This document shows positions 7,536 through 47,624 of a DNA stretch of 64,000 nt, piece after piece. The stretch is from NCBI GenBank assembly GCA_032622095.1, contig CP136065.1, positions 92,635,343 through 92,699,342 of the forward strand, in the 5' to 3' direction. The notes below the pieces were generated by a model. It worked only from the letters and a program-made list of their open reading frames with translations. It made no database searches and was not told the origin of the DNA. The DNA comes from Siphonodentalium dalli. Taxonomy: Eukaryota; Mollusca; Scaphopoda; Gadilida; Siphonodentaliidae. How positions within the stretch are numbered: the first letter of the stretch is position 1; each line of letters opens with the position of its first letter. Both the position numbers and the translations under genes were made by a program.

Positions 7536-8039
7536 GACGTAAATGAATTTCTTGAATAACTATCATCGAATTGTAAAATGTTAACCATCTATAGTAGCAT
7601 TACTAAAATTCTCAGGTATGAATTTCTTGCGGTGTGGGATTAATGCCTCACATTTAATCACTACGTGACATTCGTCACCAATGCCTTTATGCCAAAGTGT
7701 ACACACCCTGGTATCCTTGATTGCTTTTTCCATCTGCCGTTTTCGAAGGGTAATCTATGGTTTGATGTGTTCTTATCTTTACAATATATTGGGCTAGATG
7801 GAAAGGAATTCCAAAAACGTAACGGCTCAATTTTGGAAACGCCTTAATTGATGCATGAAAAGTGCCCCTGGTTGATGTCAGTGAGCTATTTCAATCTTGG
7901 ATACAATTATCTATTAGCGTCGGTTTCGTTGATATTTTATTAAAATTTTGACAATGGTTGCTGGTATAACCATTTAAAAATAAAGCCCACTTCTTGCAAT
8001 GTGGCTCAAATGAATTTCAACCATCATATTTCATCAGAA

Positions 8040-22035: not shown

Positions 22036-23235
22036 CTAAAAGAATGAAGGAATATCAGTCAAACAATCGTCAGTCAGATGGCGCCATTGTCAAACGTATG
22101 TGTAATATTATGACAGGAAACACTGGGCGATGAGCGGGTTGTTCAATATGGAGGGTAATTAGGGTCACAATTACAAGTGCTAACTTGTATATGTATATAG
22201 AATGTGAAAAGCTATTTTCAATTGTCAAATGGCAGAATTTAGTGCTGTCAAATGCTGTTTCAAATGTAAAATTCCCGAATTTATTTTGTATTTCTTAATT
22301 CCAAATGAGAAAATTAAGATTATACTGAAACTTTAAATAATTAAATCTTAAAATATAATTGTTTATATATAAACCAGTGCCATGTGTCTATCAACTTCAT
22401 TAGTGAAACTTGTAACTAGCATCTTAAATTATGAAAGTAAGGTTTTAAAAATTAAAAACTAGAAGTAAGAAGTTAAAAACTAGTTGATGAAATATGAAAG
22501 TTATCGTCTAAAATTTACAAATGAATTTATGACACTTCCAACGCACTGTCAAATTATGACGGCAGAGGGCGCCACCAAACCAAATACCCGTCTGCTCTAT
22601 GTCAAATTGTTAACATCCGGTAACCACGTCAAAATAATATACAATGCGTGCAATAGCGTCACTTGCTTCTCACTGCATACAAGAAAACCATAGTCAGAAA
22701 TGGAAACGCGCTCAATATCATATATTATATTGGTTTCGCGAATGAACAACTCAGAATTCTGTTAAAATAACAATAACAACCAGCACCTAATTAACGAACC
22801 GGTGGCCGACTCGGCCGTCTCCGACCACAACCATCAGTGCGCTGCAGAACGAAAAATATCTATAAAAGTTTAAATATGAGACTTACAAATTATCTTTTAA
22901 ATTTATTTTATTGGCAATTGACATAGCTTGTCACAAACCAAAAATCAATATAAAGGACAATAACCGAAATTGAAATTCCCAACTACACCTTTTATCGGAC
23001 TCGGCCTCCTGGTCGCGCTGTTCGACTTTTAAACCGGAAAAAACAATTATCTATAATTAAAATGCCCATGGGACCACGGCTATCACGAAATTTCCGAACA
23101 GTATACACGCGGTGCGCGCGCTAATAACATACATATTAATATTCTAAAATCGATAGAGTGTTATCAGTCGTCACATATGTCTAATTTATTGCTATTTTAA
23201 TTAGAAACTTGATTTCAGACTGCTTCCTTGTCTCT
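22036..23235. other. Presumed intron, AT-rich
   Basis: No further exon recognised. It contains small local duplications (AGTAAGAAGTTAAAAACTAG-type near 22440-22485) and otherwise simple AT-rich sequence. Confidence 0.4.
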
Positions 23236-24863
23236 TATAATGAGTATAATGGAGTATAATGGAGTACAATGAGTATAATGAGTATAATGAGTATAATGGA
23301 GTATAATGAGTATAATGAGTATAATGGAGTATAATGAGTATAATGAGTATAATGAGTATAATGAGTGTAATGAGTATAATGAGTATAATGGAGTATAATG
23401 AGTATAATGGAGTGTAATGAGTATAAATGAGTATAATGGAGTACAATGAGCATAATGAGTATAATGAGTATAATGGAGTATAATGAGTATAATGAGTATA
23501 ATGAGTATAATGGAGTATAATGAGTACAATGAGTATAATGAGTGTAATGGAGTATAATGAGTATAAATGAGTATAATGGAGTACAATGAGTATAATGAGT
23601 ATAATGAGTATAATGGAGTATAATGAGTACAATGAGTATAATGGAGTATAATCAGTATAATCAGTATAATGAGTATAATGATTGTAATGGAGTACAATGA
23701 GTATAATGAGTATAATGAGTATAATGAGTATAATGGAGTATAATGAGTATAATGGAGTATAATGAGTATAATGCGTATAATGGAGTACAATGAGTATAAT
23801 GAGTATAACGAGTATAATGGAGTACAATGAGTATAATGAGTATAATGAGTATAATGAGTATAATGAGTATAATGAGTATAATGAGTATAATGAGTATAAT
23901 GAGTATAATGAGTATAATGAGTATAATGAGTATAATGAGTATAATGAGTATAATGAGTATAATGGAGTACAATGAGTACAATGAGTATAATGAGTATAAT
24001 GAGTATAATGAGTATAATGAGTATAATGGAGTACAATGAGTATAATGAGTATAATGAGTATAATGGAGTACAATGAGTATAATGAGTATAATGAGTATTA
24101 TGAGTATAATGGAGTACAATGTAGTATAATGAGTATAATGAGTATAATGGAGTACAATGAGTATAATGAGTATAATGAGTATAATGAGTATAATGAGTAT
24201 AATGAGTATAATGCAGTATAATGGAGTATAATGGAGTATAATGAGTATAATGGAGTATAATGAGTATAATGGAGTACAATGAGTATAATGGAGTATAATG
24301 GAGTATAATGAGTATAATGAGTATAATGAGTATAATGAGTAGAATGAGTATAATGGAGTAAAATGAGTTTAATGAGTATAATGGAGTATAATGGAGTATA
24401 CTGAGTATAATGAGTATAATGAGTATAATGGAGTATAATGGAGTATAATGAGTTTAATGAGTATAACGGAGTATAATGAGTATAATGAGTATAATGGAGT
24501 GTTATGAGTAGAATGAGTAGAATGAGTATAATGAGTATAATGAGTGTAATGGAGTATAATGCGTAGAATGAGTATACTGAGTATAATGAGTATAATGGAG
24601 TACAATGAGTATAATGAGTATAATGGAGTATAATGAGTATAATGGAGTATAATGAGTATAATGGAGTATAATGAGTATAATGAGTATAATGCAGTATAAT
24701 GCAGTATAATGAGTATAATGAATATAATGAGTATAATGGAGTATAATCAGTATAATGGAGTATAATGAGTATAATGGAGTATAATGAGTATAAATGAGTA
24801 TAAATGAGTATAATGAGTATATTGAGTATAATGCAGTATAATGAGTATAATGGAGTACAATGA
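23236..24863. repeat. Short tandem array, unit GAGTATAAT (9 bp, with 10-bp GGAGTATAAT variants)
   Basis: About 1.63 kb of uninterrupted GAGTATAAT units, punctuated by 10-bp GGAGTATAAT or GGAGTACAAT variants. The core at about 23828-23965 is a pure run of 9-mers. Variants (GTGTAAT, AGAATGAG, TTTAATGAG) increase toward the high-coordinate side. A 9-bp period keeps all frames open, so several long apparent reading frames of repetitive peptide arise on both strands. These are not genes. The array sits in the presumed intron between the lectin and EGF exons of the receptor. Confidence 0.97.
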
Positions 24864-25855
24864 ATTAACTAAAGGCAGTAAACAATCAAAAGCTGGGAGC
24901 TGCCTCAACTTTTACATTAAGGGCCATCGCGGATTGCTAAATATATATATACGGCCCTGTTAATAAGGCGATGACATTGACTCGTGGACGCACATATTTG
25001 ACTGGAGCAGAATGTGTTCACTGCACGCCAGTACCAGACTTTATCATGCATTAAATAGTGTACAGTACTTAACATGTACTGTACATTCAGCGAGAAATGA
25101 AAAAACAAAACTTTCGGTACATTTAGGTGTTCAGTCCGTATTGGTATCTCGAACACGAGTGTTTGGTGTATTTTATGTTACCATGATTGATACCAGCCTT
25201 TCTAATAGTAAGTGCGAGAGGAACAATGCGAGACCTCGCCAAAGCGGCCCCAACACACAAAAGACACCCCCATAAACATGGTGAAATAAATCAGACTCTT
25301 TGTATTACCGTGTTGCCAATGTGTACCTGCATGCAGCCGTGTCAAAAATCGCGATATTACTCATTGACAAGATTATCAATTGTCATTGTCTGTTGTGTGA
25401 TATATTCCCACATAGAGAAACTATATACTAGCGTCATGTAATATGTGTTTGATTCTCACATACATGAATACGTATGTATACTGTAGTTTCAATGTTGGAA
25501 ACCGCCGTCATTGTGTAACAAAACAACGCTGATTCATGATTTCACATTCTTTTGATATGTAGCTCATAACAGAGACTTGGTTGACAGCGACGTCTCTTGA
25601 TAATGTGGTTACAGCAGAGCTTCTACCACCATGTTATCGTATCACGAATACCCCCAGGAAAAAAAACGGGAGGGGTACGCCGATCATTCATCATGATTCT
25701 AAATGAAAGAGTCAATGACACTGTAGCTAAACTTGGATGGGGGATAATTCCATGCGTTACAGTCAATAGAGTGATTAAGAATGCGGAAAGTTTAAATGTC
25801 TAAGTAATACTAGATGTCAACATGAAGAGATATGCATGTATATAAAGTATAATCC
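24864..25855. other. Unassigned non-coding stretch
   Basis: No exon, RNA gene or clear repeat recognised. Confidence 0.4.
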
Positions 25856-32340: not shown

Positions 32341-35300
32341 CGATCGGTCGAGAATCGTAGATTTGTATAAATGACAGACAAACAGACAAACAGACAGACA
32401 GACAGACAGAGGTCTTCAAAAATATATATGAATCTAGCCGATGAGCCCGACGTTGTCCGGGCTATTCAAAAAACAAATTTCAAGTCGATAGCTCTACCCG
32501 TTTCCGAGAACTGGTTTGCGCATGCGCGAAGCTGGCGTCACACGGGCTCGGCGACCCGATAAAATTCGTATCCGGAGCAAGATACATTCACATAGCAAAT
32601 TTCAAGTAGATAGCTCCACCCGTTTCTATATATTAGATGTTCCCGTATATCTCTCTGCAGATGCTAATAACGTTTAATGGTAAACAAAAGCTCTTTATAG
32701 CGATGCGTCAAAAACAAACGCTCATTAAATTATCACTTGATTAACCACCGCAGTGCAAGATACATTCACATAGCAAATTTCAAGTCGATAGCTCCACCCG
32801 TTTCCGAGATATCGTCTGCGCATGCGCGAAGCTGGCGTCGCACGGGCTTATCCGGGATATTCAAAAACCAAATTTCAAGTCGAACGCTCTACCCAGCACG
32901 ACGTTGTCCGGGCTATTCAAAATCCAAATTTCAAGTCGATAGCTCTACCCGTTTCCGAGATCTCGTCTGCGCATGCGCGAAGCTGGCGTCGCACGGTCTC
33001 GGCGACCAGATAAAATTCGTAGTCGGGGCAAGATACATTCACATAGCAAATTTCAAGTCGATAGCTCTACCCGTTTCCGAGATCTCGTCTGCGCATGCGC
33101 GAAGCGGGCGCCGCACGGGATCGCCAATACGACAACGACGACTGGTCAAACTACACACACGTACCAAGTTTCGTCCCGATCGGTCGTGAATCGTAGATTT
33201 GTATTAATGACACACAGACATACAAACATACAAACATACAGAGGTCTTCAAAATAAATATGAGACTAGCCGATGAGCCCGACGTTGTCCGGGCTATTCAA
33301 AAACGAAATTTCAAGTCGATAGCTCTACCCGTTTCCGAGAACTGGTTTGCGCATGCGCGAAGCTGGGGTCGCACGGGCTCGGCGACCCGATAAAATTCGT
33401 ATCCGGGGCAAGATACATTCACATAGAAAATTTCAAGTCGATAGCTCCACCCGTTTCTATATATTAGATGTTCCCGTATATCTCTCTGCAGATGCTAATA
33501 ACGTTTAATGGTAAACAAACGCTCTTTATAGCGATGCGTCAAAAACAAACGCTTATTAAATTATCAGCTCCACCCGTTTCCGAGATCTCGTCTGCGCATG
33601 CGCGAAGCTGGCGTCCCACGGGCTCGGCGGCCCGATAAAATTCGTATCCGAGGCAAGGTACATTCACATAGCAAATTTCAAGTCGATAGCTCCACCCGTT
33701 TCCGAGATCTCATCTGCGCATGCGCGAAGCGGGCGCCGCACGGGCTCGCCAATATGACAACGTCGACCGCCTGGACAAACTACACACACCTACCAAGTTT
33801 CGTCCCGATCGGTCGAGAATCGTAGATTTCTATAAATGACAGACAAACAGACAAACAGACAGACAGACAGAGGTCTTCAAAATATATATGAGACTAACCG
33901 ATGAGCCCGACGTTGTCCGGGCTATTCAAAAACCAAATTTCAAGTCGATAGCTCTGCCCGTTTCCGAGATCTGGTCTGCGCATGCGCGAAGCTGACGTCG
34001 CACGGGCTCAGCGACCCGATAAAATTCGTATCCGGGGCAAGATACATTCACATAGCAAATTTCAAGTAGATAGCTCCACCCGTTTCCGATATCTCGTCTA
34101 TGCATGCGCGAAGCTGGCGTCGCACGGGCTCGGCGACCCGATAAAATTCTTATCCGGGGCAAGATACATTCACATACCAAATGTAAAGTCTATACCTCCA
34201 CCCGTTTCCGAGATCTCGTCTGCGCATGCGCGAAGCGGGCGCCGGACGGATTCGCCAATACGACAAGGTCGACAGCCTGGTCAAACTACACACACGTACC
34301 AAGTTTTGTCCCGATCGGTCGAGAATCGTAGATTTGTATAAATGACAGACAAACATACAAACAAACAAACAGACAGAGGTCTTCAAAATATATATGAGAC
34401 TAGCCTATGAGCCCGACGTTGTCCGGGCTATTCAAAAACCACATTTCAAGTCGATAGCTCTATCCGTTTCCTAGATCTCGTCTGCGCATGCTCGAAGCTG
34501 GCGTCGCACGGGCTTGGCGACCCGATAAAATTCGTATCCGGGGCCAGATACATTCACATACCAAATTTCAAGTCGATAACTCCACCCGTTTCCGAGATCT
34601 CGTCTGCGCATGCGCGAAGCGGGCGCCGAACGGGCTCGGCGATCCGATAAAATTCGTATCCGGGGCAAGATACATTCACATAGCAAATTTCAAGTCGATA
34701 GCTCCACCCGTTTCCGAGATCTCGTCTGCGCCTGCGCGAAGCTGGCGTCGCACAGGCTCCGCGACCCGATAAAATTCGTATCCGGGGCAAGATACATTCA
34801 CATACCAAATTTCAAGTCGATAGCTCCACCCGTTTCCGAGATCTCGTCTGCGCATGCGCGAAGCTGGCGTCGCACTGGCTTCGACGACCGACTGGTCAAA
34901 CTACACACACGTACCAAGTTTCGTCCCGATCGGTGGAGAATCGTAGATTTGTATTAATGACAGACAGACATACAAACATACAAACATACAGTGTATCTTG
35001 AAATTTGGTATGTGAATGTATCTTGCCTCTTTATAGCGATGCGTCAAAAACAAACGCTCATTAAATTATCACTTGATTAACCACCGCATTGCAAGATACA
35101 TTCACATACCAAATTTCAAGTCGATTGCTCCACCCGTGTCCGAGATCTCGTCTGCGCATGCGCGAAGCTGGCGTCGCACGGGCTCGGCGGCCCGATAAAA
35201 TTCGCATCCGTGGCAAGGTACATTCACATACCAAATTTCAAGTCGATAGCTCCACCCGTTTCCGAGATCTCATCTGTGCATGCGCGAAGCTGCCGCCGCA

Positions 35301-35365
35301 CGGGCTCGCCAATATGACAACGTCGACCGCCTGGTCAAACTACACACACGTACCAAGTTTCGACC
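32341..35365. repeat. ~3,025-bp tandem duplication, copy 1 (carries the empty target site)
   Basis: Positions 32341-32905 repeat almost exactly at 35366-35930. Positions 32900-35430 repeat, after the palindromic insertion, at 44807-47220. Copy 2 lacks one 122-bp monomer (corresponding to about 34748-34870) and has a few substitutions. The two copies therefore abut at 35365/35366, and copy 2 is split by the 8.9-kb insertion. Confidence 0.9.
32900..32905. other. Empty target site of the palindromic element
   Basis: GACGTT occurs once here in the context ACCCAGCACGACGTTGTCCG, with flanks on both sides identical to those that flank the filled site at 35930/44807. It is the pre-integration form of the locus, preserved in copy 1 of the tandem duplication. 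Confidence 0.9.
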
Positions 35366-35924
35366 CGATCGGTCGAGAATCGTAGATTTGTATAAATGAC
35401 AGACAAACAGACAAACAGACAGACAGACAGACAGAGGTCTTCAAAAATATATATGAATCTAGCCGATGAGCCCGACGTTGTCCGGGCTATTCAAAAAACA
35501 AATTTCAAGTCGATAGCTCTACCCGTTTCCGAGAACTGGTTTGCGCATGCGCGAAGCTGGCGTCACACGGGCTCGGCGACCCGATAAAATTCGTATCCGG
35601 AGCAAGATACATTCACATAGCAAATTTCAAGTAGATAGCTCCACCCGTTTCTATATATTAGATGTTCCCGTATATCTCTCTGCAGATGCTAATAACGTTT
35701 AATGGTAAACAAAAGCTCTTTATAGCGATGCGTCAAAAACAAACGCTCATTAAATTATCACTTGATTAACCACCGCAGTGCAAGATACATTCACATAGCA
35801 AATTTCAAGTCGATAGCTCCACCCGTTTCCGAGATATCGTCTGCGCATGCGCGAAGCTGGCGTCGCACGGGCTTATCCGGGATATTCAAAAACCAAATTT
35901 CAAGTCGAACGCTCTACCCAGCAC

Positions 35925-35930
35925 GACGTT
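35925..35930. repeat. 6-bp target-site duplication, left (GACGTT)
   Basis: GACGTT directly abuts the first base of the element (AGAAGAATAGGGG). The same hexamer abuts the last base on the other side (44807-44812). Six-base duplications are typical of Polinton/Maverick integration. Confidence 0.92.
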
Positions 35931-36230
35931 AGAAGAATAGGGGTCTCGTTAGACCCACATCTAAAAATAGAATCTTTGGGTCTAAAATTGGTTGTACTAA
36001 AATATTCCTAAAATATCAAAAACCCCAAAAAAAAAATTTCAAAACTTCAAAAATTTATTTTTTCCAAAAAATTTCAAAAACCCTAAAATTAATTTTTTCC
36101 ACAAAAAAATTCAAAACCTCCAAATTTCAAAAAAAGAAAAAATTTCAAAACCCTCAAAATTATTTCTCTAAAAAAAAAGGTTAAATAAAAAATTTATAAC
36201 GAGTTTTTTCGGTTTCTGATAATCTCGATA
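35931..36230. other. Left terminus: subterminal stem-loop and A-tract zone
   Basis: Nine bases from the end is a perfect 6-bp stem with a 4-base loop, GGGTCTCGTTAGACCC (35942-35957). It is followed at about 35996-36190 by runs of A/T interspersed with TTTCAAAA and AACCC(T/C) words. The mirror image is at 44508-44806. Stem-loops and A-rich zones near ends may be recognised by an integrase or a replication protein. This is inference. Confidence 0.6.
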
Positions 36231-38095
36231 TTAAAAAATATCGAATGTTAAATTATTTGCTCGTAATATCTTTCGTTATTTTTTTGTTCAAATATTTTTC
36301 ATGAATTTATTAATCGATGTTTAGAAATAGCTTTATACCAATTATATGTGTATGGACAGTCGCTGTAATGTTGGACATTGTGACCAACGGTATGAATGCA
36401 TACATTCCAGTGTTTAACGGACGCAGTTCATATAATTGTCATACCTGAAAATAGACACCATTACTTTTTACATAAATAATAAAGAGCGTTTATTCTTTAC
36501 TTATCTCTATATGAAGTTATTGAGTATATGACAGGCGTGTGTATTTTCGTCAATTATTGGAAGTATTCAAATGTACTATGTTGAATCCCTAACGGTCGAA
36601 AATTGTAATGTGAAATTAGACCCCTCCAGAATGAATTGTCATATTGAATGAATGATGATTTAATCTCAGCCATTTTTACATGGAACATGAGCGATGTACA
36701 CTCAATCACACACGCCACATTGGTGTTAACAATGTGTCTTTCACACCTTTGCTTTACCAAATGAATTCTATTATTTCCCCGGTCACAGCTATATGGTATT
36801 CAGAAAACATATCGATTTGAGCAGAAATAGTTGTTTAACGGAAATTTCACATCTTACCAACAACAGTTACAGACATAATCATAGTATTATACTGTCTTGC
36901 ATGTACACACGCTATGACATCATTAAAGGCAAGTCATATTTCAGACTAACTCCTGAAAAGTTACCTATAATTCTGCTGTGGTTAAGCAGTCCATTATTTA
37001 GGGCATACCTGTATGTAGGCCTACCAGAGGATGAATAGTCTGCCGGAGAAGTACTGTGTAGACAGGTCTTGTCGGTAAGAGAGTCAGACGAGTAGTGAAG
37101 GCTCGGCTATTAAAACATAGTAATGCGATAGCGAACATCAAACGAGTCTGCGCACGCATATCTGTCAAAGGATACAAGGGCAGTCATTGGTCAATTTATC
37201 CCCGGTGTCAGCTCAGTACCCAATCGGGACGAAGCCGAAGGTCAACTCATTTTTTTTTGCTCATTATAGTACGTCACTTGGACATTTTATCAGTTTATCA
37301 CGTCATCACTAAATGTGGCAATCGGGTATCCACCGATGCCTGCAATTTATTATTTATAATAATTGGACTCATTGATCTCACGTAAATAATACTCTTAGTT
37401 GTTCCAATAAAATAGTTATCAAATTCGATCACCAATAGATTTGACTGTGGAATATAATGACCTTTAACTTATTTATCGATCTATGTTAGAACATGGTCTT
37501 AACAAAAAACTTGACCATAACAAAAATTACCTTACATTTATGCATGAATCTAATTAGACCATGCGTAAATATTGTCAGCTTATCGTCTGATGAGCAAATC
37601 CGATGTTTATCAAAAATAGTACAACTTCCAGTTGGTAATTACTCTTACGAATGAAGAGCGTTGAACATATACGAAATTACTACACGAATGAACTGAAATT
37701 TATATTTCACATCTTACCAACAACAGATACAGACATAGTCATAGTGTTATACTATCTTACATGTACACACGCTATGACATCATTCGAAGGGGCAATACAC
37801 TCAAGGAGTTAAAGTGACACGAAACAAGGGACGTGATGCAATATTGGTGTTTGAATATTAAAAGGAACACAAGACACTCTAAAGGGACACTCATTATGAA
37901 TGAATGTTAACAATACAAGCGCAGTGGTTGAAAGTTAAAATGACAGATCAATATTTAAGGGTCAAATTTTCGGGCACTTAATGCACCTTTTATCATTACG
38001 TATCGTTTCTCACTCTACAATTCCCAATAATCCACACACTCTCTCCCTCCCCCAGCTTATAGATATATAACGAAAACGAGAATATCATGTTGATG
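36231..38095. other. Outer arm non-coding region with direct repeats
   Basis: No open frame above ~100 codons and no recognisable domain. Blocks at about 36845-36932 and 37700-37790 are direct repeats of each other (CACATCTTACCAACAACAG(T/A)TACAGACAT..., ATGTACACACGCTATGACAT). A second block at 37025-37212 is repeated at 39915-40107, upstream of the ATPase gene. The same arrangement is mirrored at 42642-44507 in the other arm. Confidence 0.7.
37025..37212. repeat. Internal direct repeat of the arm, outer copy
   Basis: Shares AGTCTGCCGGAGAAG, ACAGGTCTTGTCGGTAAGAG, AAAACATAGTAATGCGATAG and CGAACATCAAACGAGTCTG with 39915-40107 in the same orientation. The ATPase gene lies between the two copies. 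Mirror copies are at 43525-43712 and 40630-40822. Confidence 0.85.
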
Positions 38096-38098
38096 AAG

Positions 38099-38104
38099 TT
38101 TATT
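38099..38104 (-). promoter_or_regulatory. Polyadenylation signal AATAAA of the left ATPase gene
   Basis: On the minus strand AATAAA lies a few bases after the stop codon at 38110, in the context TTTCAATAAACTTCATC. It is the mirror of 42633-42638. The signal indicates eukaryotic expression of the gene. Confidence 0.7.
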
Positions 38105-38109
38105 GAAAT

Positions 38110-39810
38110 TTAATCGTCCGAATTGTCATCACTTTCGCCAGAAGTGTCATATGTTACGTCCATGAATTTTTCTAGCATCGGTTTGTACTTTAATATTGAC
38201 ATTTTCACTGCATCACGTTCTCCATAACCATTATTCAAATATTTGTCGACTTTATCCATGACTCTGTTGTGCAGAGTCCCATTGCGCAGCTGCAGATACG
38301 ATACTATTGTCCAAGCATAATCAGTCATAAAGTGTATCATATCTTTACTTTTAAGGTCCTTGTCAGCTTGTTCTTTTGCTTCTGCGTCTTTCGAGCCATT
38401 TTCCTTATACGTGTCCACTTTATCACTCCATTCCTCATGTGTTTTATCTCTACTTTCATCACGCAAACTTTTGAAGTATTCATCTTCATTCAATTTAAAT
38501 TCCTTATTCTGACTATCATCCGGGTCCTCAGTTAATTTTCGTTTTAACTTATTTTCTTGACACCAGTTTTTTACGTGTCTCTGAACATCATAATGATCTA
38601 CGAACAAAAGCCCGCATTCATTACAAGGGTACGACATGTCTTCTTGAATGTCTCTGTTTTGATGGTTCTTCTTATTAATTTCATCGAGCTCACCAGGTGG
38701 CCGTATGTCGTTAGTATAGTCATTATGTTGACCCTGGGGCACAATATAATTATATGTTATGCCCTTCTGTTGACCGGGGAGTTCTCTGTCATCGTATTTC
38801 ATCGCATTCTGTTGACCCTGGGTCTCAGTGTCTTTTGTATGTTTTATCATCCCATTCTGTTCATCTGGGTGTTCTCTGTCTTTTTGGAGATTATATTTCA
38901 TGCCATTCCATTCACCCCTATGTTGGTTCGTGTCCTCTTTTAGTACATTCTGTCGCAGACGTAATGTGTCCGGTGTTGCGGCTTTTAAATCCACCAGTAG
39001 GTAACCGTACGGTTCACTCGTCGCTTCCGAAAACTCTCGAACCATACGCTGAGGACATTCAGGATACATCTGTCTTGATAATGTTGAAATTAATCCCTTG
39101 TCGATTGGGTTATTGAACAATACCAAATATTGACAATTTCGTCGTTGCGTTGGATCTTTGTTGTAGTAGAAATTCTGGTTCAAACTTATCAAAGATAAGT
39201 TCAAATGGTGACTTCCTTCGGAATGCAAATCATTAACTCTCGGGTCTTTTGATGAAGTTTGCATCAAGTCATCGAGTATAACTAGATTTTTATACCGGGG
39301 GTTGATAAGCGAATCCAAGTTTGCTGGTATTCCTCGTATAAAGTTGACCTGAGGGGTGACGGTATACTTTAATTCGTCATATAGGGGCTGCCAATATTTA
39401 TAAAACCATATTATTCTGTCAGGTGCGGGTGATATTTTTGAGGCAGACTTTTGTAGTAAGGTTTTCACGAAGTATGTCTTACCACAAGATGTCGGTCCAC
39501 TTACACATGCCGTGAATGGATGCTTGAAAATAAAATCTTCATGAACATTGGCCATTGGATCATCAAAGCAGGATGTTATGTCGCTTTGTTGCTGTGTCCC
39601 CTGCTGGTGTTGTAGTATCTGGTGTGGCTGTAATGGCTGTTGTTGTGGCTGATGATACTGCTGCCTGTTGCTGCTACGGTCTGTTGCTGTTGCTTGGTGC
39701 TGCTGCTGTGGGTGTCGGTTAACAAACTCAGTGTGCTTAGATTGTACATGTCTTATCAAATCATGGTTCCGCACATACCCCCTAGAGCAAATTGAACACT
39801 GGTGCTTCAT
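38110..39810 (-). CDS. Zinc finger-packaging ATPase-zinc finger fusion protein (left arm copy)
   Basis: An intact, intronless 566-codon gene read from the centre outward. Residues 5-26 form a C2H2 finger (Cys5, Cys8, His21, His26), and about 33-75 are Gln/His-rich. Residues 95-290 are a P-loop ATPase with Walker A GPTSCGKT (105-112), Walker B NLVILDDL (175-182, Asp180/Asp181) and a polar sensor-like SLISLNQNFY (206-215). About 295-380 hold six imperfect ~17-residue repeats around GQQNxMKY. Residues 396-417 form a second finger (Cys396, Cys399, His412, Cys417). The C-terminal ~140 residues are charged and end in an acidic tail. The ATPase resembles A32/FtsK-HerA-type genome-packaging motors of Polintons and related viruses. 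The flanking fingers and repeats are an unusual fusion for that family, which is usually much shorter. The protein is identical to the right-arm copy. Confidence 0.85.
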   Translation of the reverse strand: MKHQCSICSRGYVRNHDLIRHVQSKHTEFVNRHPQQQHQATATDRSSNRQQYHQPQQQPLQPHQILQHQQGTQQQSDITSCFDDPMANVHEDFIFKHPFTACVSGPTSCGKTYFVKTLLQKSASKISPAPDRIIWFYKYWQPLYDELKYTVTPQVNFIRGIPANLDSLINPRYKNLVILDDLMQTSSKDPRVNDLHSEGSHHLNLSLISLNQNFYYNKDPTQRRNCQYLVLFNNPIDKGLISTLSRQMYPECPQRMVREFSEATSEPYGYLLVDLKAATPDTLRLRQNVLKEDTNQHRGEWNGMKYNLQKDREHPDEQNGMIKHTKDTETQGQQNAMKYDDRELPGQQKGITYNYIVPQGQHNDYTNDIRPPGELDEINKKNHQNRDIQEDMSYPCNECGLLFVDHYDVQRHVKNWCQENKLKRKLTEDPDDSQNKEFKLNEDEYFKSLRDESRDKTHEEWSDKVDTYKENGSKDAEAKEQADKDLKSKDMIHFMTDYAWTIVSYLQLRNGTLHNRVMDKVDKYLNNGYGERDAVKMSILKYKPMLEKFMDVTYDTSGESDDNSDD

Positions 39811-40168
39811 TTATACTTGACTAAAATGTCTCGGTATATGGATTTCCTTTATACAAATGTTCCTTATAACCTAAAAATATGTCATGTCCGTATGTTTGAT
39901 AACTTTATGTAGATGAAATAGTCTGCCGGAGAAGCACTGTGTATACGGGGAATCAACAGGTCTTGTCGGTAAGAGAGTCAGACGAGAAGTGAAGTATCGA
40001 CTATTAAAACATAGTAATGCGATAGCGAACATCAAACGAGTCTGGACACGCATATCTGTCAAAAGATACAAATAGCCGTCATTGGTCAATCTATCCTCGG
40101 TATCACTTTTCGTTTTACAAAATCAATTTCACCGAGAGGTTCCCTCGTCATTTGTAGTGACGTAATTG
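39811..40168 (-). promoter_or_regulatory. Upstream region of the left ATPase gene with inner direct repeat
   Basis: A non-coding stretch between the start codon at 39810 and the GCC array. It includes 39915-40107, the inner copy of the arm's direct repeat. Being directly upstream of the gene, it is the likely promoter region. The mirror-image region at 40570-40926 serves the right copy, so the two genes diverge from the centre. No TATA-type box is assigned with certainty. Confidence 0.45.
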
Positions 40169-40569
40169 TGGCACCGCCGCCGGCGGCGGCGGCGGCGGCG
40201 GCATTGCGGTATTTGCCGGCGGCGGCGGCGGCATTGCGGTATTTGCCGGCGGCGGCGGCGGCATTGCGGTATTTGCCGGCGGCGGCGGCGGCGGCATTGC
40301 GGTTTTTGCCGGCGGCGGCGGCGGCATTGCAGTATTTTACTGCGGGGTCCGCCGGCGGCGGACCCCGGCGGCGGTGGCTGCACCGCCGCCGCAGTAAAAT
40401 ACCGCAATGCCGCCGCCGCCGCCGGCAAATACCGCAATGCCGCCGCCGCCGCCGGCAAAAACCGCAATGCCGCCGCCGCCGCCGCCGGCAAATACCACAA
40501 TGCCGCCGCCGCCGCCGGCAAATACCGCAATGCCGCCGCCGCCGCCGCCGCCGCCGGCGGCGGTGCCAC
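40169..40569. repeat. Central GCC/GGC array in inverted arrangement
   Basis: Units of ~30 bp (a GGC run, then GCATTGCGGTATTTGCC) repeat on the left side, and their reverse complements on the right. Reading inward, the left spacers are TATTT, TATTT, TATTT, TTTTT. The right ones, in the same sense, are TATTT, TATTT (with a GCATTGTGG variant), TTTTT, TATTT. The outermost GGC run has 7 triplets on the left and 8 on the right. The arms are therefore least alike here. Long alanine/arginine or proline frames across it are composition artefacts. Confidence 0.92.
40332..40402. other. T-shaped (parvovirus-like) hairpin at the palindrome centre
   Basis: The innermost stem is GTATTTTACTGC against GCAGTAAAATAC. 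Between them lie two separate perfect hairpins that abut: GGGGTCCGCC-GGC-GGCGGACCCC (40344-40366) and GGCGGCGGTG-GCTG-CACCGCCGCC (40367-40390). A long stem topped by two side-by-side short hairpins is the layout of adeno-associated-virus-type inverted terminal repeats, where the 3' end folds back to prime replication and later forms dimer junctions. The fold is seen in the sequence, the function is inference. Confidence 0.8.
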
Positions 40570-40926
40570 AATTACGTCACTACAAATGACGAGGGAACCT
40601 CTCGGTGAAATTGATTTTGTAAAACGAAAAGTGATACCGAGGATAGATTGACCAATGACGGCTATTTGTATCTTTTGACAGATATGCGTGTCCAGACTCG
40701 TTTGATGTTCGCTATCGCATTACTATGTTTTAATAGTCGATACTTCACTTCTCGTCTGACTCTCTTACCGACAAGACCTGTTGATTCCCCGTATACACAG
40801 TGCTTCTCCGGCAGACTATTTCATCTACATAAAGTTATCAAACATACGGACATGACATATTTTTAGGTTATAAGGAACATTTGTATAAAGGAAATCCATA
40901 TACCGAGACATTTTAGTCAAGTATAA
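40570..40926 (+). promoter_or_regulatory. Upstream region of the right ATPase gene
   Basis: Mirror of 39811-40168. It includes the inner direct repeat (40630-40822) ahead of the start codon at 40927. Confidence 0.45.
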
Positions 40927-42627
40927 ATGAAGCACCAGTGTTCAATTTGCTCTAGGGGGTATGTGCGGAACCATGATTTGATAAGACATGTACAATCTAA
41001 GCACACTGAGTTTGTTAACCGACACCCACAGCAGCAGCACCAAGCAACAGCAACAGACCGTAGCAGCAACAGGCAGCAGTATCATCAGCCACAACAACAG
41101 CCATTACAGCCACACCAGATACTACAACACCAGCAGGGGACACAGCAACAAAGCGACATAACATCCTGCTTTGATGATCCAATGGCCAATGTTCATGAAG
41201 ATTTTATTTTCAAGCATCCATTCACGGCATGTGTAAGTGGACCGACATCTTGTGGTAAGACATACTTCGTGAAAACCTTACTACAAAAGTCTGCCTCAAA
41301 AATATCACCCGCACCTGACAGAATAATATGGTTTTATAAATATTGGCAGCCCCTATATGACGAATTAAAGTATACCGTCACCCCTCAGGTCAACTTTATA
41401 CGAGGAATACCAGCAAACTTGGATTCGCTTATCAACCCCCGGTATAAAAATCTAGTTATACTCGATGACTTGATGCAAACTTCATCAAAAGACCCGAGAG
41501 TTAATGATTTGCATTCCGAAGGAAGTCACCATTTGAACTTATCTTTGATAAGTTTGAACCAGAATTTCTACTACAACAAAGATCCAACGCAACGACGAAA
41601 TTGTCAATATTTGGTATTGTTCAATAACCCAATCGACAAGGGATTAATTTCAACATTATCAAGACAGATGTATCCTGAATGTCCTCAGCGTATGGTTCGA
41701 GAGTTTTCGGAAGCGACGAGTGAACCGTACGGTTACCTACTGGTGGATTTAAAAGCCGCAACACCGGACACATTACGTCTGCGACAGAATGTACTAAAAG
41801 AGGACACGAACCAACATAGGGGTGAATGGAATGGCATGAAATATAATCTCCAAAAAGACAGAGAACACCCAGATGAACAGAATGGGATGATAAAACATAC
41901 AAAAGACACTGAGACCCAGGGTCAACAGAATGCGATGAAATACGATGACAGAGAACTCCCCGGTCAACAGAAGGGCATAACATATAATTATATTGTGCCC
42001 CAGGGTCAACATAATGACTATACTAACGACATACGGCCACCTGGTGAGCTCGATGAAATTAATAAGAAGAACCATCAAAACAGAGACATTCAAGAAGACA
42101 TGTCGTACCCTTGTAATGAATGCGGGCTTTTGTTCGTAGATCATTATGATGTTCAGAGACACGTAAAAAACTGGTGTCAAGAAAATAAGTTAAAACGAAA
42201 ATTAACTGAGGACCCGGATGATAGTCAGAATAAGGAATTTAAATTGAATGAAGATGAATACTTCAAAAGTTTGCGTGATGAAAGTAGAGATAAAACACAT
42301 GAGGAATGGAGTGATAAAGTGGACACGTATAAGGAAAATGGCTCGAAAGACGCAGAAGCAAAAGAACAAGCTGACAAGGACCTTAAAAGTAAAGATATGA
42401 TACACTTTATGACTGATTATGCTTGGACAATAGTATCGTATCTGCAGCTGCGCAATGGGACTCTGCACAACAGAGTCATGGATAAAGTCGACAAATATTT
42501 GAATAATGGTTATGGAGAACGTGATGCAGTGAAAATGTCAATATTAAAGTACAAACCGATGCTAGAAAAATTCATGGACGTAACATATGACACTTCTGGC
42601 GAAAGTGATGACAATTCGGACGATTAA
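40927..42627 (+). CDS. Zinc finger-packaging ATPase-zinc finger fusion protein (right arm copy)
   Basis: Exact inverted duplicate of the left-arm gene, also 566 codons and intact. It starts at an ATG in the context AGTATAAATGAAGC. It carries the same C2H2 finger, Gln/His-rich linker, Walker A (residues 105-112), Walker B (175-182), repeat region and CCHC-type second finger. Two identical genes diverging from the hairpin centre could be co-transcribed outward in opposite directions. No other Polinton gene is found beside it. Its retention as an open frame in both arms suggests either a very young insertion or selection, and the ATPase may act in packaging for a helper element. Confidence 0.85.
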   Translation: MKHQCSICSRGYVRNHDLIRHVQSKHTEFVNRHPQQQHQATATDRSSNRQQYHQPQQQPLQPHQILQHQQGTQQQSDITSCFDDPMANVHEDFIFKHPFTACVSGPTSCGKTYFVKTLLQKSASKISPAPDRIIWFYKYWQPLYDELKYTVTPQVNFIRGIPANLDSLINPRYKNLVILDDLMQTSSKDPRVNDLHSEGSHHLNLSLISLNQNFYYNKDPTQRRNCQYLVLFNNPIDKGLISTLSRQMYPECPQRMVREFSEATSEPYGYLLVDLKAATPDTLRLRQNVLKEDTNQHRGEWNGMKYNLQKDREHPDEQNGMIKHTKDTETQGQQNAMKYDDRELPGQQKGITYNYIVPQGQHNDYTNDIRPPGELDEINKKNHQNRDIQEDMSYPCNECGLLFVDHYDVQRHVKNWCQENKLKRKLTEDPDDSQNKEFKLNEDEYFKSLRDESRDKTHEEWSDKVDTYKENGSKDAEAKEQADKDLKSKDMIHFMTDYAWTIVSYLQLRNGTLHNRVMDKVDKYLNNGYGERDAVKMSILKYKPMLEKFMDVTYDTSGESDDNSDD

Positions 42628-42632
42628 ATTTC

Positions 42633-42638
42633 AATAAA
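42633..42638 (+). promoter_or_regulatory. Polyadenylation signal AATAAA of the right ATPase gene
   Basis: AATAAA five bases after the stop codon, mirror of 38099-38104. Confidence 0.7.
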
Positions 42639-42641
42639 CTT

Positions 42642-44507
42642 CATCAACATGATATTCTCGTTTTCGTTATATATCTATAAGCTGGGGGAGGGAGAGAGTG
42701 TGTGGATTATTGGGAATTGTAGAGTGAGAAACGATACGTAATGATAAAAGGTGCATTAAGTGCCCGAAAATTTGACCCTTAAATATTGATCTGTCATTTT
42801 AACTTTCAACCACTGCGCTTGTATTGTTAACATTCATTCATAATGAGTGTCCCTTTAGAGTGTCTTGTGTTCCTTTTAATATTCAAACACCAATATTGCA
42901 TCACGTCCCTTGTTTCGTGTCACTTTAACTCCTTGAGTGTATTGCCCCTTCGAATGATGTCATAGCGTGTGTACATGTAAGATAGTATAACACTATGACT
43001 ATGTCTGTATCTGTTGTTGGTAAGATGTGAAATATAAATTTCAGTTCATTCGTGTAGTAATTTCGTATATGTTCAACGCTCTTCATTCGTAAGAGTAATT
43101 ACCAACTGGAAGTTGTACTATTTTTGATAAACATCGGATTTGCTCATCAGACGATAAGCTGACAATATTTACGCATGGTCTAATTAGATTCATGCATAAA
43201 TGTAAGGTAATTTTTGTTATGGTCAAGTTTTTTGTTAAGACCATGTTCTAACATAGATCGATAAATAAGTTAAAGGTCATTATATTCCACAGTCAAATCT
43301 ATTGGTGATCGAATTTGATAACTATTTTATTGGAACAACTAAGAGTATTATTTACGTGAGATCAATGAGTCCAATTATTATAAATAATAAATTGCAGGCA
43401 TCGGTGGATACCCGATTGCCACATTTAGTGATGACGTGATAAACTGATAAAATGTCCAAGTGACGTACTATAATGAGCAAAAAAAAATGAGTTGACCTTC
43501 GGCTTCGTCCCGATTGGGTACTGAGCTGACACCGGGGATAAATTGACCAATGACTGCCCTTGTATCCTTTGACAGATATGCGTGCGCAGACTCGTTTGAT
43601 GTTCGCTATCGCATTACTATGTTTTAATAGCCGAGCCTTCACTACTCGTCTGACTCTCTTACCGACAAGACCTGTCTACACAGTACTTCTCCGGCAGACT
43701 ATTCATCCACTGGTAGGCCTACATACAGGTATGCCCTAAATAATGGACTGCTTAACCACAGCAGAATTATAGGTAACTTTTCAGGAGTTAGTCTGAAATA
43801 TGACTTGCCTTTAATGATGTCATAGCGTGTGTACATGCAAGACAGTATAATACTATGATTATGTCTGTAACTGTTGTTGGTAAGATGTGAAATTCCCGTT
43901 AAACAACTATTTCTGCTCAAATCGATATGTTTTCTGAATACCATATAGCTGTGACCGGGGAAATAATAGAATTCATTTGGTAAAGCAAAGGTGTGAAAGA
44001 CACATTGTTAACACCAATGTGGCGTGTGTGATTGAGTGTACATCGCTCATGTTCCATGTAAAAATGGCTGAGATTAAATCATCATTCATTCAATATGACA
44101 ATTCATTCTGGAGGGGTCTAATTTCACATTACAATTTTCGACCGTTAGGGATTCAACATAGTACATTTGAATACTTCCAATAATTGACGAAAATACACAC
44201 GCCTGTCATATACTCAATAACTTCATATAGAGATAAGTAAAGAATAAACGCTCTTTATTATTTATGTAAAAAGTAATGGTGTCTATTTTCAGGTATGACA
44301 ATTATATGAACTGCGTCCGTTAAACACTGGAATGTATGCATTCATACCGTTGGTCACAATGTCCAACATTACAGCGACTGTCCATACACATATAATTGGT
44401 ATAAAGCTATTTCTAAACATCGATTAATAAATTCATGAAAAATATTTGAACAAAAAAATAACGAAAGATATTACGAGCAAATAATTTAACATTCGATATT
44501 TTTTAAT
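42642..44507. other. Outer right arm, non-coding mirror of 36231-38095
   Basis: Contains mirrored direct repeats (42947-43037 with 43805-43892, and 43525-43712 with 40630-40822). A few substitutions distinguish it from the left arm, for example near 43709. No recognisable coding region. Confidence 0.7.
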
Positions 44508-44806
44508 ATCGAGATTATCAGAAACCGAAAAAACTCGTTATAAATTTTTTATTTAACCTTTTTTTTTAGAGAAATAATTTTGAGGGTTTTGAAATTTTTT
44601 CTTTTTTTGAAATTTGGAGGTTTTGAATTTTTTTGTGGAAAAAATTAATTTTAGGGTTTTTGAAATTTTTTGGAAAAAATAAATTTTTGAAGTTTTGAAA
44701 TTTTTTTTTTTGGGTTTTTGATATTTTAGGAATATTTTAGTACAACCAATTTTAGACCCAAAGATTCTATTTTTAGATGTGGGTCTAACGAGACCCCTAT
44801 TCTTCT

Positions 44807-44812
44807 GACGTT
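44807..44812. repeat. 6-bp target-site duplication, right (GACGTT)
   Basis: Directly follows the last base of the element (ATTCTTCT) and continues into GTCCGGGCTATTC of the satellite, matching the empty site at 32900. Confidence 0.92.
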
Positions 44813-47624
44813 GTCCGGGCTATTCAAAATCCAAATTTCAAGTCGATAGCTCTACCCGTTTCCGAGATCTCGTCTGCGCATGTGCGAAGCTGGCGTCGCA
44901 CGGTCTCGGCGACCAGATAAAATTCGTAGTCGGGGCAAGATACATTCACATAGCAAATTTCAAGTCGATAGCTCTACCCGTTTCCGAGATCTCGTCTGCG
45001 CATGCGCGAAGCGGGCGCCGCACGGGATCGCCAATACGACAACGACGACTGGTCAAACTACACACACGTACCAAGTTTCGTCCCGATCGGTCGTGAATCG
45101 TAGATTTGTATTAATGACACACAGACATACAAACATACAAACATACAGAGGTCTTCAAAATAAATATGAGACTAGCCGATGAGCCCGACGTTGTCCGGGC
45201 TATTCAAAAACGAAATTTCAAGTCGATAGCTCTACCCGTTTCCGAGAACTGGTTTGCGCATGCGCGAAGCTGGGGTCGCACGGGCTCGGCGACCCGATAA
45301 AATTCGTATCCGGGGCAAGATACATTCACATAGAAAATTTCAAGTCGATAGCTCCACCCGTTTCTATATATTAGATGTTCCCGTATATCTCTCTGCAGAT
45401 GCTAATAACGTTTAATGGTAAACAAACGCTCTTTATAGCGATGCGTCAAAAACAAACGCTTATTAAATTATCAGCTCCACCCGTTTCCGAGATCTCGTCT
45501 GCGCATGCGCGAAGCTGGTGTCCCACGGGCTCGGCGGCCCGATAAAATTCGTATCCGAGGCAAGGTACATTCACATAGCAAATTTCAAGTCGATAGCTCC
45601 ACCCGTTTCCGAGATCTCATCTGCGCATGCGCGAAGCGGGCGCCGCACGGGCTCGCCAATATGACAACGTCGACCGCCTGGACAAACTACACACACCTAC
45701 CAAGTTTCGTCCCGATCGGTCGAGAATCGTAGATTTCTATAAATGACAGACAAACAGACAAACAGACAGACAGACAGAGGTCTTCAAAATATATATGAGA
45801 CTAACCGATGAGCCCGACGTTGTCCGGGCTATTCAAAAACCAAATTTCAAGTCGATAGCTCTGCCCGTTTCCGAGATCTGGTCTGCGCATGCGCGAAGCT
45901 GACGTCGCACGGGCTCAGCGACCCGATAAAATTCGTATCCGGGGCAAGATACATTCACATAGCAAATTTCAAGTAGATAGCTCCACCCGTTTCCGATATC
46001 TCGTCTATGCATGCGCGAAGCTGGCGTCGCACGGGCTCGGCGACCCGATAAAATTCTTATCCGGGGCAAGATACATTCACATACCAAATGTAAAGTCTAT
46101 ACCTCCACCCGTTTCCGAGATCTCGTCTGCGCATGCGCGAAGCGGGCGCCGCACGGGTTCGCCAATACGACAAGGTCGACAGCCTGGTCAAACTACACAC
46201 ACGTACCAAGTTTTGTCCCGATCGGTCGAGAATCGTAGATTTGTATAAATGACAGACAAACATACAAACAAACAAACAGACAGAGGTCTTCAAAATATAT
46301 ATGAGACTAGCCTATGAGCCCGACGTTGTCCGGGCTATTCAAAAACCACATTTCAAGTCGATAGCTCTATCCGTTTCCTAGATCTCGTCTGCGCATGCTC
46401 GAAGCTGGCGTCGCACGGGCTTGGCGACCCGATAAAATTCGTATCCGGGGCCAGATACATTCACATACCAAATTTCAAGTCGATAACTCCACCCGTTTCC
46501 GAGATCTCGTCTGCGCATGCGCGAAGCGGGCGCCGAACGGGCTCGGCGATCCGATAAAATTCGTATCCGGGGCAAGATACATTCACATAGCAAATTTCAA
46601 GTCGATAGCTCCACCCGTTTCCGAGATCTCGTCTGCGCCTGCGCGAAGCTGGCGTCGCACAGGCTTCGACGACCGACTGGTCAAACTACACACACGTACC
46701 AAGTTTCGTCCCGATCGGTGGAGAATCGTAGATTTGTATTAATGACAGACAGACATACAAACATACAAACATACAGTGTATCTTGAAATTTGGTATGTGA
46801 ATGTATCTTGCCTCTTTATAGCGATGCGTCAAAAACAAACGCTCATTAAATTATCACTTGATTAACCACCGCATTGCAAGATACATTCACATACCAAATT
46901 TCAAGTCGATTGCTCCACCCGTGTCCGAGATCTCGTCTGCGCATGCGCGAAGCTGGCGTCGCACGGGCTCGGTGGCCCGATAAAATTCGCATCCGTGGCA
47001 AGGTACATTCACATACCAAATTTCAAGTCGATAGCTCCACCCGTTTCCGAGATCTCATCTGTGCATGCGCGAAGCTGCCGCCGCACGGGCTCGCCAATAT
47101 GACAACGTCGACCGCCTGGTCAAACTACACACACGTACCAAGTTTCGACCCGATCGGTCGAGAATCGTAGATTTGTATAAATGACAGACAAACAGACAAA
47201 CAGACAGACAGACAGACAGAGGTCTTCAAAATATATATGAGACTAACCGATGAGCCCGACGTTGTCCGGGCTATTCAAAAACCAAATTTCAAGTCGATAG
47301 CTCTACCCAGCCCGACGTTGTCCGGGCTATTCAAAAACCAAATTTCAAGTCGATAGCTCTGCCCGTTTCCGAGATCTGGTCTGCGCATGCGCGAAGCTGG
47401 CGTCGCACGGGCTCAGCGACCCGATAAAATTCGTATCCGGGTCCAGATACATTCACATACCAAATTTCAAGTAGATAGCTCCACCCGTTTCCGAGATCTC
47501 GTCTGCGCATGCGCGAAGCTGGCGTCGCACGGGCTCGGCGACCCGATAAAATTCGTATCCGGGGCAAGATACATTCACATACCAAATTTCAAGTCTATAA
47601 CTCCGCCCGTTTCCGAGATCTCGT

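What the first reader, a model, noticed from the sequence alone, without database searches (positions are those of the whole stretch)
35931..44806. 8.9-kb near-perfect palindrome with Polinton-like ends: an integrated head-to-head dimer?
The sequence shows base x pairing with 80737-x over almost the whole 8,876 bp, bounded by a GACGTT duplication and AG...CT ends. Polintons/Mavericks are known for 6-bp duplications, AG starts and an A32-type ATPase. They are not known to me to be complete palindromes of two ATPase genes. I infer that a ~4.4-kb linear replicon with one integrase-type end and one hairpin end was copied through its hairpin and integrated as a dimer. Alternatives are a Polinton with 4.4-kb terminal repeats that lost its interior, or inverted duplication after insertion.
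Basis: partly seen in the sequence, partly recalled or inferred. Interest (0 to 1): 0.95.

Follow-up and report, generated by a model that had tools for sequence, protein, structure and literature searches.

The report
Palindromic satellite of a Polinton
An 8.9-kb mobile element in a mollusc-like genome reads the same on both strands, can fold at its centre into a T-shaped hairpin, carries two copies of a virus-type DNA-packaging motor gene, and looks like a parasite that borrowed the ends of a larger virus-like transposon in the same genome.

Summary
The palindrome is real. Arms 35931-40202 and 40535-44806 differ at 3 of 4,272 positions, GACGTT is duplicated, and a neighbouring array unit matches the empty site (594 nt, one mismatch). 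It is not a one-off dimer: all 24 elements behind the 40 best-scoring genome hits are head-to-head palindromes, and 12 of 13 whose ends were read have perfect 6-bp duplications. The two arms agree in 310 of 312 element-by-site cells (213 expected if independent), so one arm is copied from the other, during moves or by conversion. The tip sequence is present in 15 of 18 centres; 14 of these 15 fold as a T-shaped double hairpin. The same genome holds 16.2-kb Polintons (PolB, integrase, protease-like and capsid-like genes, own small ATPase, TBP, PC4) with matching ends (12 of 12 checked); in 7 of 9 palindromes compared, homology stops at the Polinton's inner TIR boundary. The palindrome's 566-aa zinc-finger A32 ATPase is a different lineage (32% identity). 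I read it as a non-autonomous Polinton satellite, moved in trans, copied through a hairpin, possibly diverting packaging. Trans-mobilisation and packaging are inferred, not shown.

The parts
35931..40202 (+). left arm of the palindrome
   Evidence: 3 mismatches in 4,272 against the right arm
40535..44806 (-). right arm of the palindrome
35925..35930 (+). target-site duplication GACGTT, left
44807..44812 (+). target-site duplication GACGTT, right
35931..36841 (+). [quoted passage not shown]
43896..44806 (-). mirror copy of the Polinton-type terminal repeat
35931..35955 (+). terminal AGAAGA motif plus hypervariable block; the same block is at the other end
38110..39810 (-). 566-aa C2H2 zinc finger + A32-type packaging ATPase, left copy
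40927..42627 (+). 566-aa C2H2 zinc finger + A32-type packaging ATPase, right copy (identical)
40187..40352 (+). left half of the CGG-rich stem (30/33-nt units)
40383..40547 (+). right half of the CGG-rich stem
40344..40366 (+). tip hairpin 1 (10-bp stem)
   Evidence: DNA fold of 40325-40410, z -8.6
40367..40390 (+). tip hairpin 2 (10-bp stem)
   Evidence: DNA fold of 40325-40410, z -8.6
32606..33199 (+). array unit that matches the empty insertion site
   Evidence: 594 nt, 99.8%

Best explanation
The locus is one recent copy of a high-copy, non-autonomous satellite of a Polinton. It consists of the Polinton's own terminal repeat at both ends and a foreign cargo: a zinc-finger A32 packaging ATPase gene plus a CGG-stem, T-tipped hairpin, present in mirror image. 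Shown: the palindromic state of all 24 sampled elements, perfect 6-bp target duplications in 12 of 13, ends shared with full-length Polintons in the same genome, near-perfect concordance of the two arms, a recurrent foldable tip, and a distinct ATPase. Inferred: the Polinton's integrase and protein-primed PolB act on it in trans; a displaced strand folds back into a 4.4-kb hairpin whose single AGAAGA end is re-primed and copied through the tip, which regenerates the 8.9-kb dimer and makes both arms identical every cycle; the dimer is then inserted by the integrase. Speculative: its ATPase lets it compete for, or redirect, packaging into the Polinton's capsids.
For: Palindrome, TSD and empty site. 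All 24 elements behind the 40 best hits have both arms (16 as pairs within the hits; 8 more by fetching the partner side). Arms agree in 310 of 312 element-by-site cells (13 informative ORF sites, 24 elements), 213 expected if drawn independently; within-element ORF differences mean 1.6 against 6.9 between elements. T-shaped tip of the window copy: z -8.6, 0 of 200 shuffles as good; tip sequence found in 15 of 18 centres, 14 of the 15 folding with two hairpin loops. TSDs in 12 of 13 elements. 16.2-kb Polintons with the same ends: two read in pieces, each with its own 6-bp TSD; 10 of 10 further PolB copies, taken from plus-strand places, have the same left end at the predicted place. Homology ends at the Polinton's inner TIR boundary in 7 of 9 palindromes compared. 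Helper encodes PolB, rve+chromo integrase, a weak Peptidase_C5 match and a small A32-like ATPase and a 420-aa capsid candidate. ATPases 32% identical. Repeated end motifs serve jumping-back in protein-primed replication of Mavericks (PMC8097293, section 7 and part 1 of section 14).
Against: No replication intermediate, monomer or particle was seen. Arm concordance could also come from gene conversion between arms. Variants of the ATPase shared between copies or arms are 4 synonymous to 13 non-synonymous, close to the neutral expectation of 19% synonymous, so there is no sign that the ATPase is kept by selection within this young family. Three of 18 centres lack the tip and one tip folds as a single hairpin. 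The full Polinton has its own ATPase, so the satellite's is not obviously needed. The sample of 24 is the best-scoring part of 1,564 candidates; other copies, single-armed ones included, were not examined.
Confidence: 0.7

Rival explanations
1. A static palindromic transposon: it was formed once, moves as an ordinary double-stranded 8.9-kb element, and its arms are kept alike by gene conversion between arms (for example in a cruciform).
For: Arms agree in 310 of 312 cells, which conversion could also give; central deletions, as expected of palindrome processing, are seen (L025, L027, L003).
Against: Single-arm differences persist in 20 of 24 elements (0-5 per ORF pair, mean 1.6), so conversion after insertion is slow compared with the moves; variants shared between elements are almost never split between arms.
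Confidence: 0.18
2. An internal-deletion or fold-back (snap-back defective) genome of a zinc-finger-ATPase Polinton whose ATPase-bearing end was duplicated, as happens in adenovirus stocks (recalled), later dispersed without function of its own.
For: Five of the ten bivalve or metagenome proteins that I read in full join this type of ATPase to an integrase, a chromodomain or an adenovirus-type protease (P0046, P0047, P0067, P0092, P0104, picked because their domain column showed it), so it seems to belong to full Polintons elsewhere; protein-primed replication can give fold-backs.
Against: The Polintons in this genome that share its ends carry a different, 221-aa ATPase and none of its interior apart from a ~31-nt motif; a T-tip recurs in 15 of 18 copies. 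The two readings are compatible if the satellite arose this way in another lineage and then took over this Polinton's ends.
Confidence: 0.25
3. Assembly artefact: a single-arm element read as a palindrome.
For: Long palindromes are a known artefact of long-read data (recalled); no reads were available here.
Against: Symmetry stops at the ends with a TSD; 24 of 24 elements, with arm-private mutations and unequal stem repeats on the two sides.
Confidence: 0.03

Closest known systems
Polinton/Maverick (self-synthesising virus-like transposons)
   Same: 6-bp target duplications, inverted ends beginning AG with a short repeated end motif (here AGAAGA), A32-type packaging ATPase; ends shared with full Polintons of the same genome
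   Different: 8.9 kb, a complete palindrome, no PolB, integrase or capsid gene found; terminal inverted repeat is 4.27 kb against 46-1,447 bp in vertebrate Mavericks (PMC8097293)
Adeno-associated virus and other parvoviruses (rolling-hairpin replication; helper dependence for AAV)
   Same: central tip predicted as T-shaped with two small hairpins on a long stem; head-to-head dimer form; inferred helper dependence (AAV shape recalled; abstracts on rolling hairpin seen in listings)
   Different: the hairpin is in the middle of an integrated dimer, not at both genome ends; no Rep-type protein found in the four ORFs scanned; ends and target duplications are of the integrase type
Satellites with their own packaging gene, such as phage-inducible chromosomal islands (recalled)
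   Same: small helper-dependent element with a packaging-related gene of its own and shared helper signals
   Different: eukaryotic, transposon-like helper, ATPase motor rather than a terminase small subunit; hijacking is untested
Virophages/Polinton-like viruses (recalled, and abstracts in the listing)
   Same: Polinton-related hyperparasitism
   Different: virophages encode capsid proteins (recalled) and parasitise giant viruses; this one carries a single recognisable gene and seems to parasitise a Polinton
Fold-back and long-TIR DNA transposons (recalled)
   Same: long inverted repeats
   Different: coding arms, a structured tip and helper-type ends

Membership tests
Polinton/Maverick | 6-bp target-site duplication | tested here: met
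   12 of 13 elements whose ends were read
Polinton/Maverick | inverted ends starting AG with a repeated end motif | tested here: met
   AGAAGA at both ends of 12 palindromes and 2 Polintons
Polinton/Maverick | protein-primed PolB and rve/chromo integrase encoded | tested here: not met
   the ATPase is the only ORF above 150 aa per arm outside the GC-rich centre; four ORFs scanned with Pfam
Polinton/Maverick | capsid and protease genes | tested here: not met
   same ORF lists; Pfam scan of four ORFs only
Polinton/Maverick | A32-type packaging ATPase | tested here: met
   Pox_A32 over cut-off; 25 of the 28 members of alignment A1, the window protein included; fold
Polinton/Maverick | length about 15-25 kb (PMC6431247) | tested here: not met
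   8,876 bp
Satellite of a Polinton | shares ends with a full helper in the same genome | tested here: met
   12 of 12 PolB-952 copies looked at (both ends of 2; left end of 10)
Satellite of a Polinton | lacks helper core genes but carries a gene not derived from the helper | tested here: met
   ATPase 32% identical to the helper's; interior unmatched apart from a ~31-nt motif
Satellite of a Polinton | moves only when the helper's enzymes are present | not testable with these tools
   needs an experiment
Parvovirus-type hairpin replicon | T- or Y-shaped hairpin tip | tested here: met
   DNA folding of the window tip z -8.6; tip sequence in 15 of 18 centres, 14 of 15 fold with two hairpin loops
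Parvovirus-type hairpin replicon | Rep/NS1 nickase-helicase | tested here: inconclusive
   not found among the four ORFs scanned with Pfam
Parvovirus-type hairpin replicon | strand copied through the hairpin | tested here: inconclusive
   arm concordance 310 of 312 fits, but gene conversion would too

The most novel reading that the evidence does not exclude
A new class of animal mobile element: a 4.4-kb hairpin replicon, integrated as its own head-to-head dimer, that has put on a Polinton's terminal repeats, is replicated and integrated by that Polinton, is homogenised by copying through a T-shaped tip at every cycle, and uses a zinc-finger packaging motor of foreign lineage to take over the Polinton's capsids. 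It would be the eukaryotic transposon counterpart of capsid-hijacking phage satellites.
Probability: 0.35. Interest if true: 0.95.

Novelty: new variant of a known kind. Interest (0 to 1): 0.87.

Why it matters
Polintons are thought to be virus-like, but particles have not been observed (abstract of PMC8097293, seen in the listing). A high-copy satellite whose two arms record the copying events would give genomic evidence that Polinton-type replication can pass through a folded-back hairpin, and a dedicated packaging ATPase in a satellite would imply that Polinton capsids are made and worth stealing. The shared ends of satellite and helper make the system testable.

Tried and rejected
Relatives of the ATPase in viral contigs and genome contigs, and an 18-nt end pattern in viral contigs, gave none; the tools warn that records near the window's genome may be left out, and the 18-nt pattern spans positions that later proved hypervariable. 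No paper describing such an element appeared in the listings (none listed). Of papers I read only PMC6431247 (section 10 and passages) and PMC8097293 (section 7, part 1 of section 14, and passages). The library is open-licence only, so absence there is weak evidence. Purifying selection on the ATPase within the family was tested and not seen. The idea that the variable terminal block is a hairpin was looked at by eye and dropped: only some copies could pair. The second Polinton family (PolB 1,301 aa, L079) has no match to the palindrome. Three small ORFs of the arm gave no Pfam family over its cut-off. One tip (L029) does not fold as a T at minimum energy.

Wanted and not obtained: genome-wide counts of the ends, of the tip and of zinc-finger ATPases outside palindromes. 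The genome search answered only. It reported 'busy'. Copy numbers are therefore lower bounds. In one search the helper ends had been cut at their TIR boundary, so its stop points meant nothing; one search repeated the comparison with longer helper stretches, and only that is used. In one search, stretches outside the ORF (divergent end types, flanks) inflated some distances; the ORF-only one search is used instead. mis-set the ends by one base; one search replaces it. A first concordance count on 12 elements gave 204 of 204 cells, with 24 elements and a stricter site rule, replaces it.
Full report
WHAT IS THERE. The window is G000:C5:92635343-92699342 of a 2.23-Gb assembly in 9 contigs. Between 35931 and 44806 lies an almost perfect palindrome: 3 mismatches in the 4,272 positions outside the centre. 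It is flanked by the duplication GACGTT. Joining the flanks with one GACGTT gives a sequence that a unit of the surrounding tandem array matches at 99.8% over 594 nt (32606-33199), so the element was inserted into that array and the duplication was made by the insertion.

THE GENE. Each arm holds one identical 566-codon frame. It has a C2H2 finger at residues 3-26, a Pox_A32 match over the cut-off at 94-234, a second finger-like stretch near 392-418 and a helical C-terminal part. In the alignment of the window protein with 27 relatives the Walker A Gly-Lys, an Asp-Asp pair and four Cys/His residues of the second finger are invariant, while the N-terminal finger is missing in several rows. Of these 28 sequences 25 match Pox_A32 and 11 match adenovirus IVa2. 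The AlphaFold model has mean pLDDT 72 and pTM 0.46, but 16 of the 20 ten-residue blocks from 91 to 290 are at 90 or more. Its 12 best solved matches are STIV/STIV2 B204 genome-packaging NTPases (TM-score about 0.6 by target length); among viral models A32-like and IVa2 proteins come up. Five bivalve gene models run from this type of ATPase into an integrase, a chromodomain or an adenovirus-type protease (P0046, P0047, P0067, P0092, P0104), which suggests that in other bivalves it sits inside full Polintons. Those are gene models, not DNA that I could read.

THE CENTRE. The last ~165 nt of each arm are 30/33-nt CGG-rich units that form a stem. At the very tip are two adjacent perfect 10-bp hairpins (40344-40366 and 40367-40390) on an outer stem. 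The 86-nt tip folds at -42.5 kcal/mol against -19.9 (sd 2.6) for shuffles, z -8.6, 0 of 200 as good; the shape resembles the terminal hairpin of AAV (recalled). In the window the stem has 2 substitutions plus unit shifts in about 165 nt (counted by eye) against 3 in about 4,270 nt outside (Fisher p 0.013). CGG repeats also mutate fast, so this says little.

A FAMILY, NOT AN ACCIDENT. The ATPase gene has 1,564 candidate places in the genome by a loose first look, of which the best 40 were scored, all at 99-100% identity. They fall into 24 elements: 16 show both arms among the hits, and for the other 8 the partner arm was found by fetching the facing side, so 24 of 24 are head to head. This sample is biased to the best copies. 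Of 18 centres examined, 15 hold the tip sequence, with length changes in some, and three have central deletions; 14 of the 15 tips fold with two hairpin loops, one with a single one. The frame is open in 30 of 30 best-scoring copies, while four of the partner arms fetched later have indels or a gap (L060, L061, L062, L065). Of 13 elements whose ends were read, 12 have the same kind of ends and a perfect 6-bp duplication; in the thirteenth one end is altered and the other was not found.

ARMS ARE COPIED FROM EACH OTHER. At 13 ORF sites where two alleles each occur in at least two elements, the two arms of an element agree in 310 of 312 cells, against 213 expected if arms were drawn independently. 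The two exceptions are one rare base at one site, seen in one arm of two elements. Differences between arms of one element (mean 1.6, range 0-5 in the ORF) are otherwise private to that element, as expected of mutations after insertion, while elements differ from each other by 6.9 on average. So at each move, or between moves, one arm is made from the other. A strand that folds on itself and is copied through the tip does this automatically. Gene conversion between arms is the alternative, but the persistence of single-arm differences in 20 of 24 elements shows that it is not fast in resting copies.

THE HELPER. A search of the same genome for DNA_pol_B_2 gave 149 matches, 69 of 1,596 candidates being scored. 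By my reading of the list, 11 places have a PolB type of about 1,300 codons (one of them with 1,098) and the rest mostly frames of about 952 codons, with a stop noted in one. Two copies of the 952 type were read in pieces. Both are 16.2 kb (C2:222982882-222999106 and C1:212062264-212078497), with terminal repeats of about 1.2 and 1.1 kb and TSDs CGTAGG and TATGCC. In the C2 copy the genes found are PolB (8.7e-52), PC4 (4.1e-15), TBP (3e-32), an integrase with rve (5e-15) and chromodomain, a 148-aa frame with a weak adenovirus-protease match just below the cut-off, a 221-aa A32-like ATPase (Pfam matches below cut-off, but E=8e-30 to the palindrome's ATPase in a single comparison), a 420-aa frame some of whose relatives are named 'F54H12.2-like' (a name that I recall for Maverick capsid proteins) and unassigned frames. 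The first 911 nt of the palindrome are 95.6% identical to the left end and 94% to the right end of the C2 copy; the C1 copy matches in pieces at about 83-92% apart from one short 96% piece. Ten further PolB copies, chosen from plus-strand places, all have the same left end at the predicted position (10 of 10). Nine of the 24 palindromes were compared with long helper stretches: in 7, homology stops at position 1,182-1,183, at the helper's inner TIR boundary (1,186/1,192), in three of these in broken blocks; in one of the other two it stops near 1,140, and in the window copy at 904-909. Beyond that only a ~31-nt promoter-like motif is shared. The helper's ATPase and the palindrome's are 32% identical over 206 aa.

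HOW IT PROBABLY WORKS. Shown: the anatomy, the target duplications, the shared ends, the arm concordance. Inferred: the Polinton supplies integrase and protein-primed polymerase. Mavericks are said to need repeated end motifs for jumping back (PMC8097293), and AGAAGA is such a repeat. A displaced satellite strand would close on itself as a 4.4-kb hairpin with a T-tip; priming at its one end and copying through the tip gives back the 8.9-kb dimer. Speculative: the satellite's own packaging motor with DNA-binding fingers steers the helper's capsids to satellite DNA. Against the last step, variants shared between copies or arms show no excess of synonymous changes (4 to 13), so selection on the ATPase within this young burst is not visible.

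WHAT REMAINS OPEN. Total copy number, the origin of the cargo and the existence of a free 4.4-kb form are unknown. The terminal block between AGAAGA and CACATC is strongly variable between elements yet identical at both ends of each (14 of 14 elements, 13 distinct blocks), and the variants of palindromes and helpers overlap: by my tally all 7 second-half variants of the 12 palindromes also occur among the 12 helpers. This speaks for exchange of ends between satellite and helper, but why this block varies is unexplained.

Noticed in passing
window 35937-35955 and mirror; ends in L031-L054, L077-L081, L082-L091: A hypervariable block just inside the AGAAGA end differs between elements but is identical at both ends of each of 14 elements; palindromes and Polintons share variants.
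   Followed up: partly
L077:8680-9869: The 16.2-kb Polinton encodes a TATA-binding protein and a PC4 coactivator, unusual for a Polinton as far as I recall.
   Followed up: no
L079: A second Polinton-like family in the same genome with a 1,301-aa PolB and a 198-aa frame matching adenovirus IVa2, without a match to the palindrome.
   Followed up: no
L025, about position 1305: A palindrome that lost its whole CGG centre, so that the arms meet almost without a spacer, as if the hairpin tip had been cut out and rejoined.
   Followed up: no
window about 31000-51500: A long tandem array with higher-order units (for example 35127-35426 and 45474-45773 are 96% alike), into which the element inserted.
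   Followed up: partly
window about 23200-24900, minus strand: A long simple-repeat-like stretch that reads as overlapping low-complexity frames (THYTPLYSLYS) in several frames.
   Followed up: no
window 37179-37209 and 40075-40123; L078 about 7609-7639: A CCAAT-type promoter-like motif shared by palindrome and Polinton outside the terminal repeat.
   Followed up: partly
L003/L016 (C4:15.97 Mb): A copy with only CGG repeats at its centre, an altered left end and a right end not found at the expected place.
   Followed up: partly
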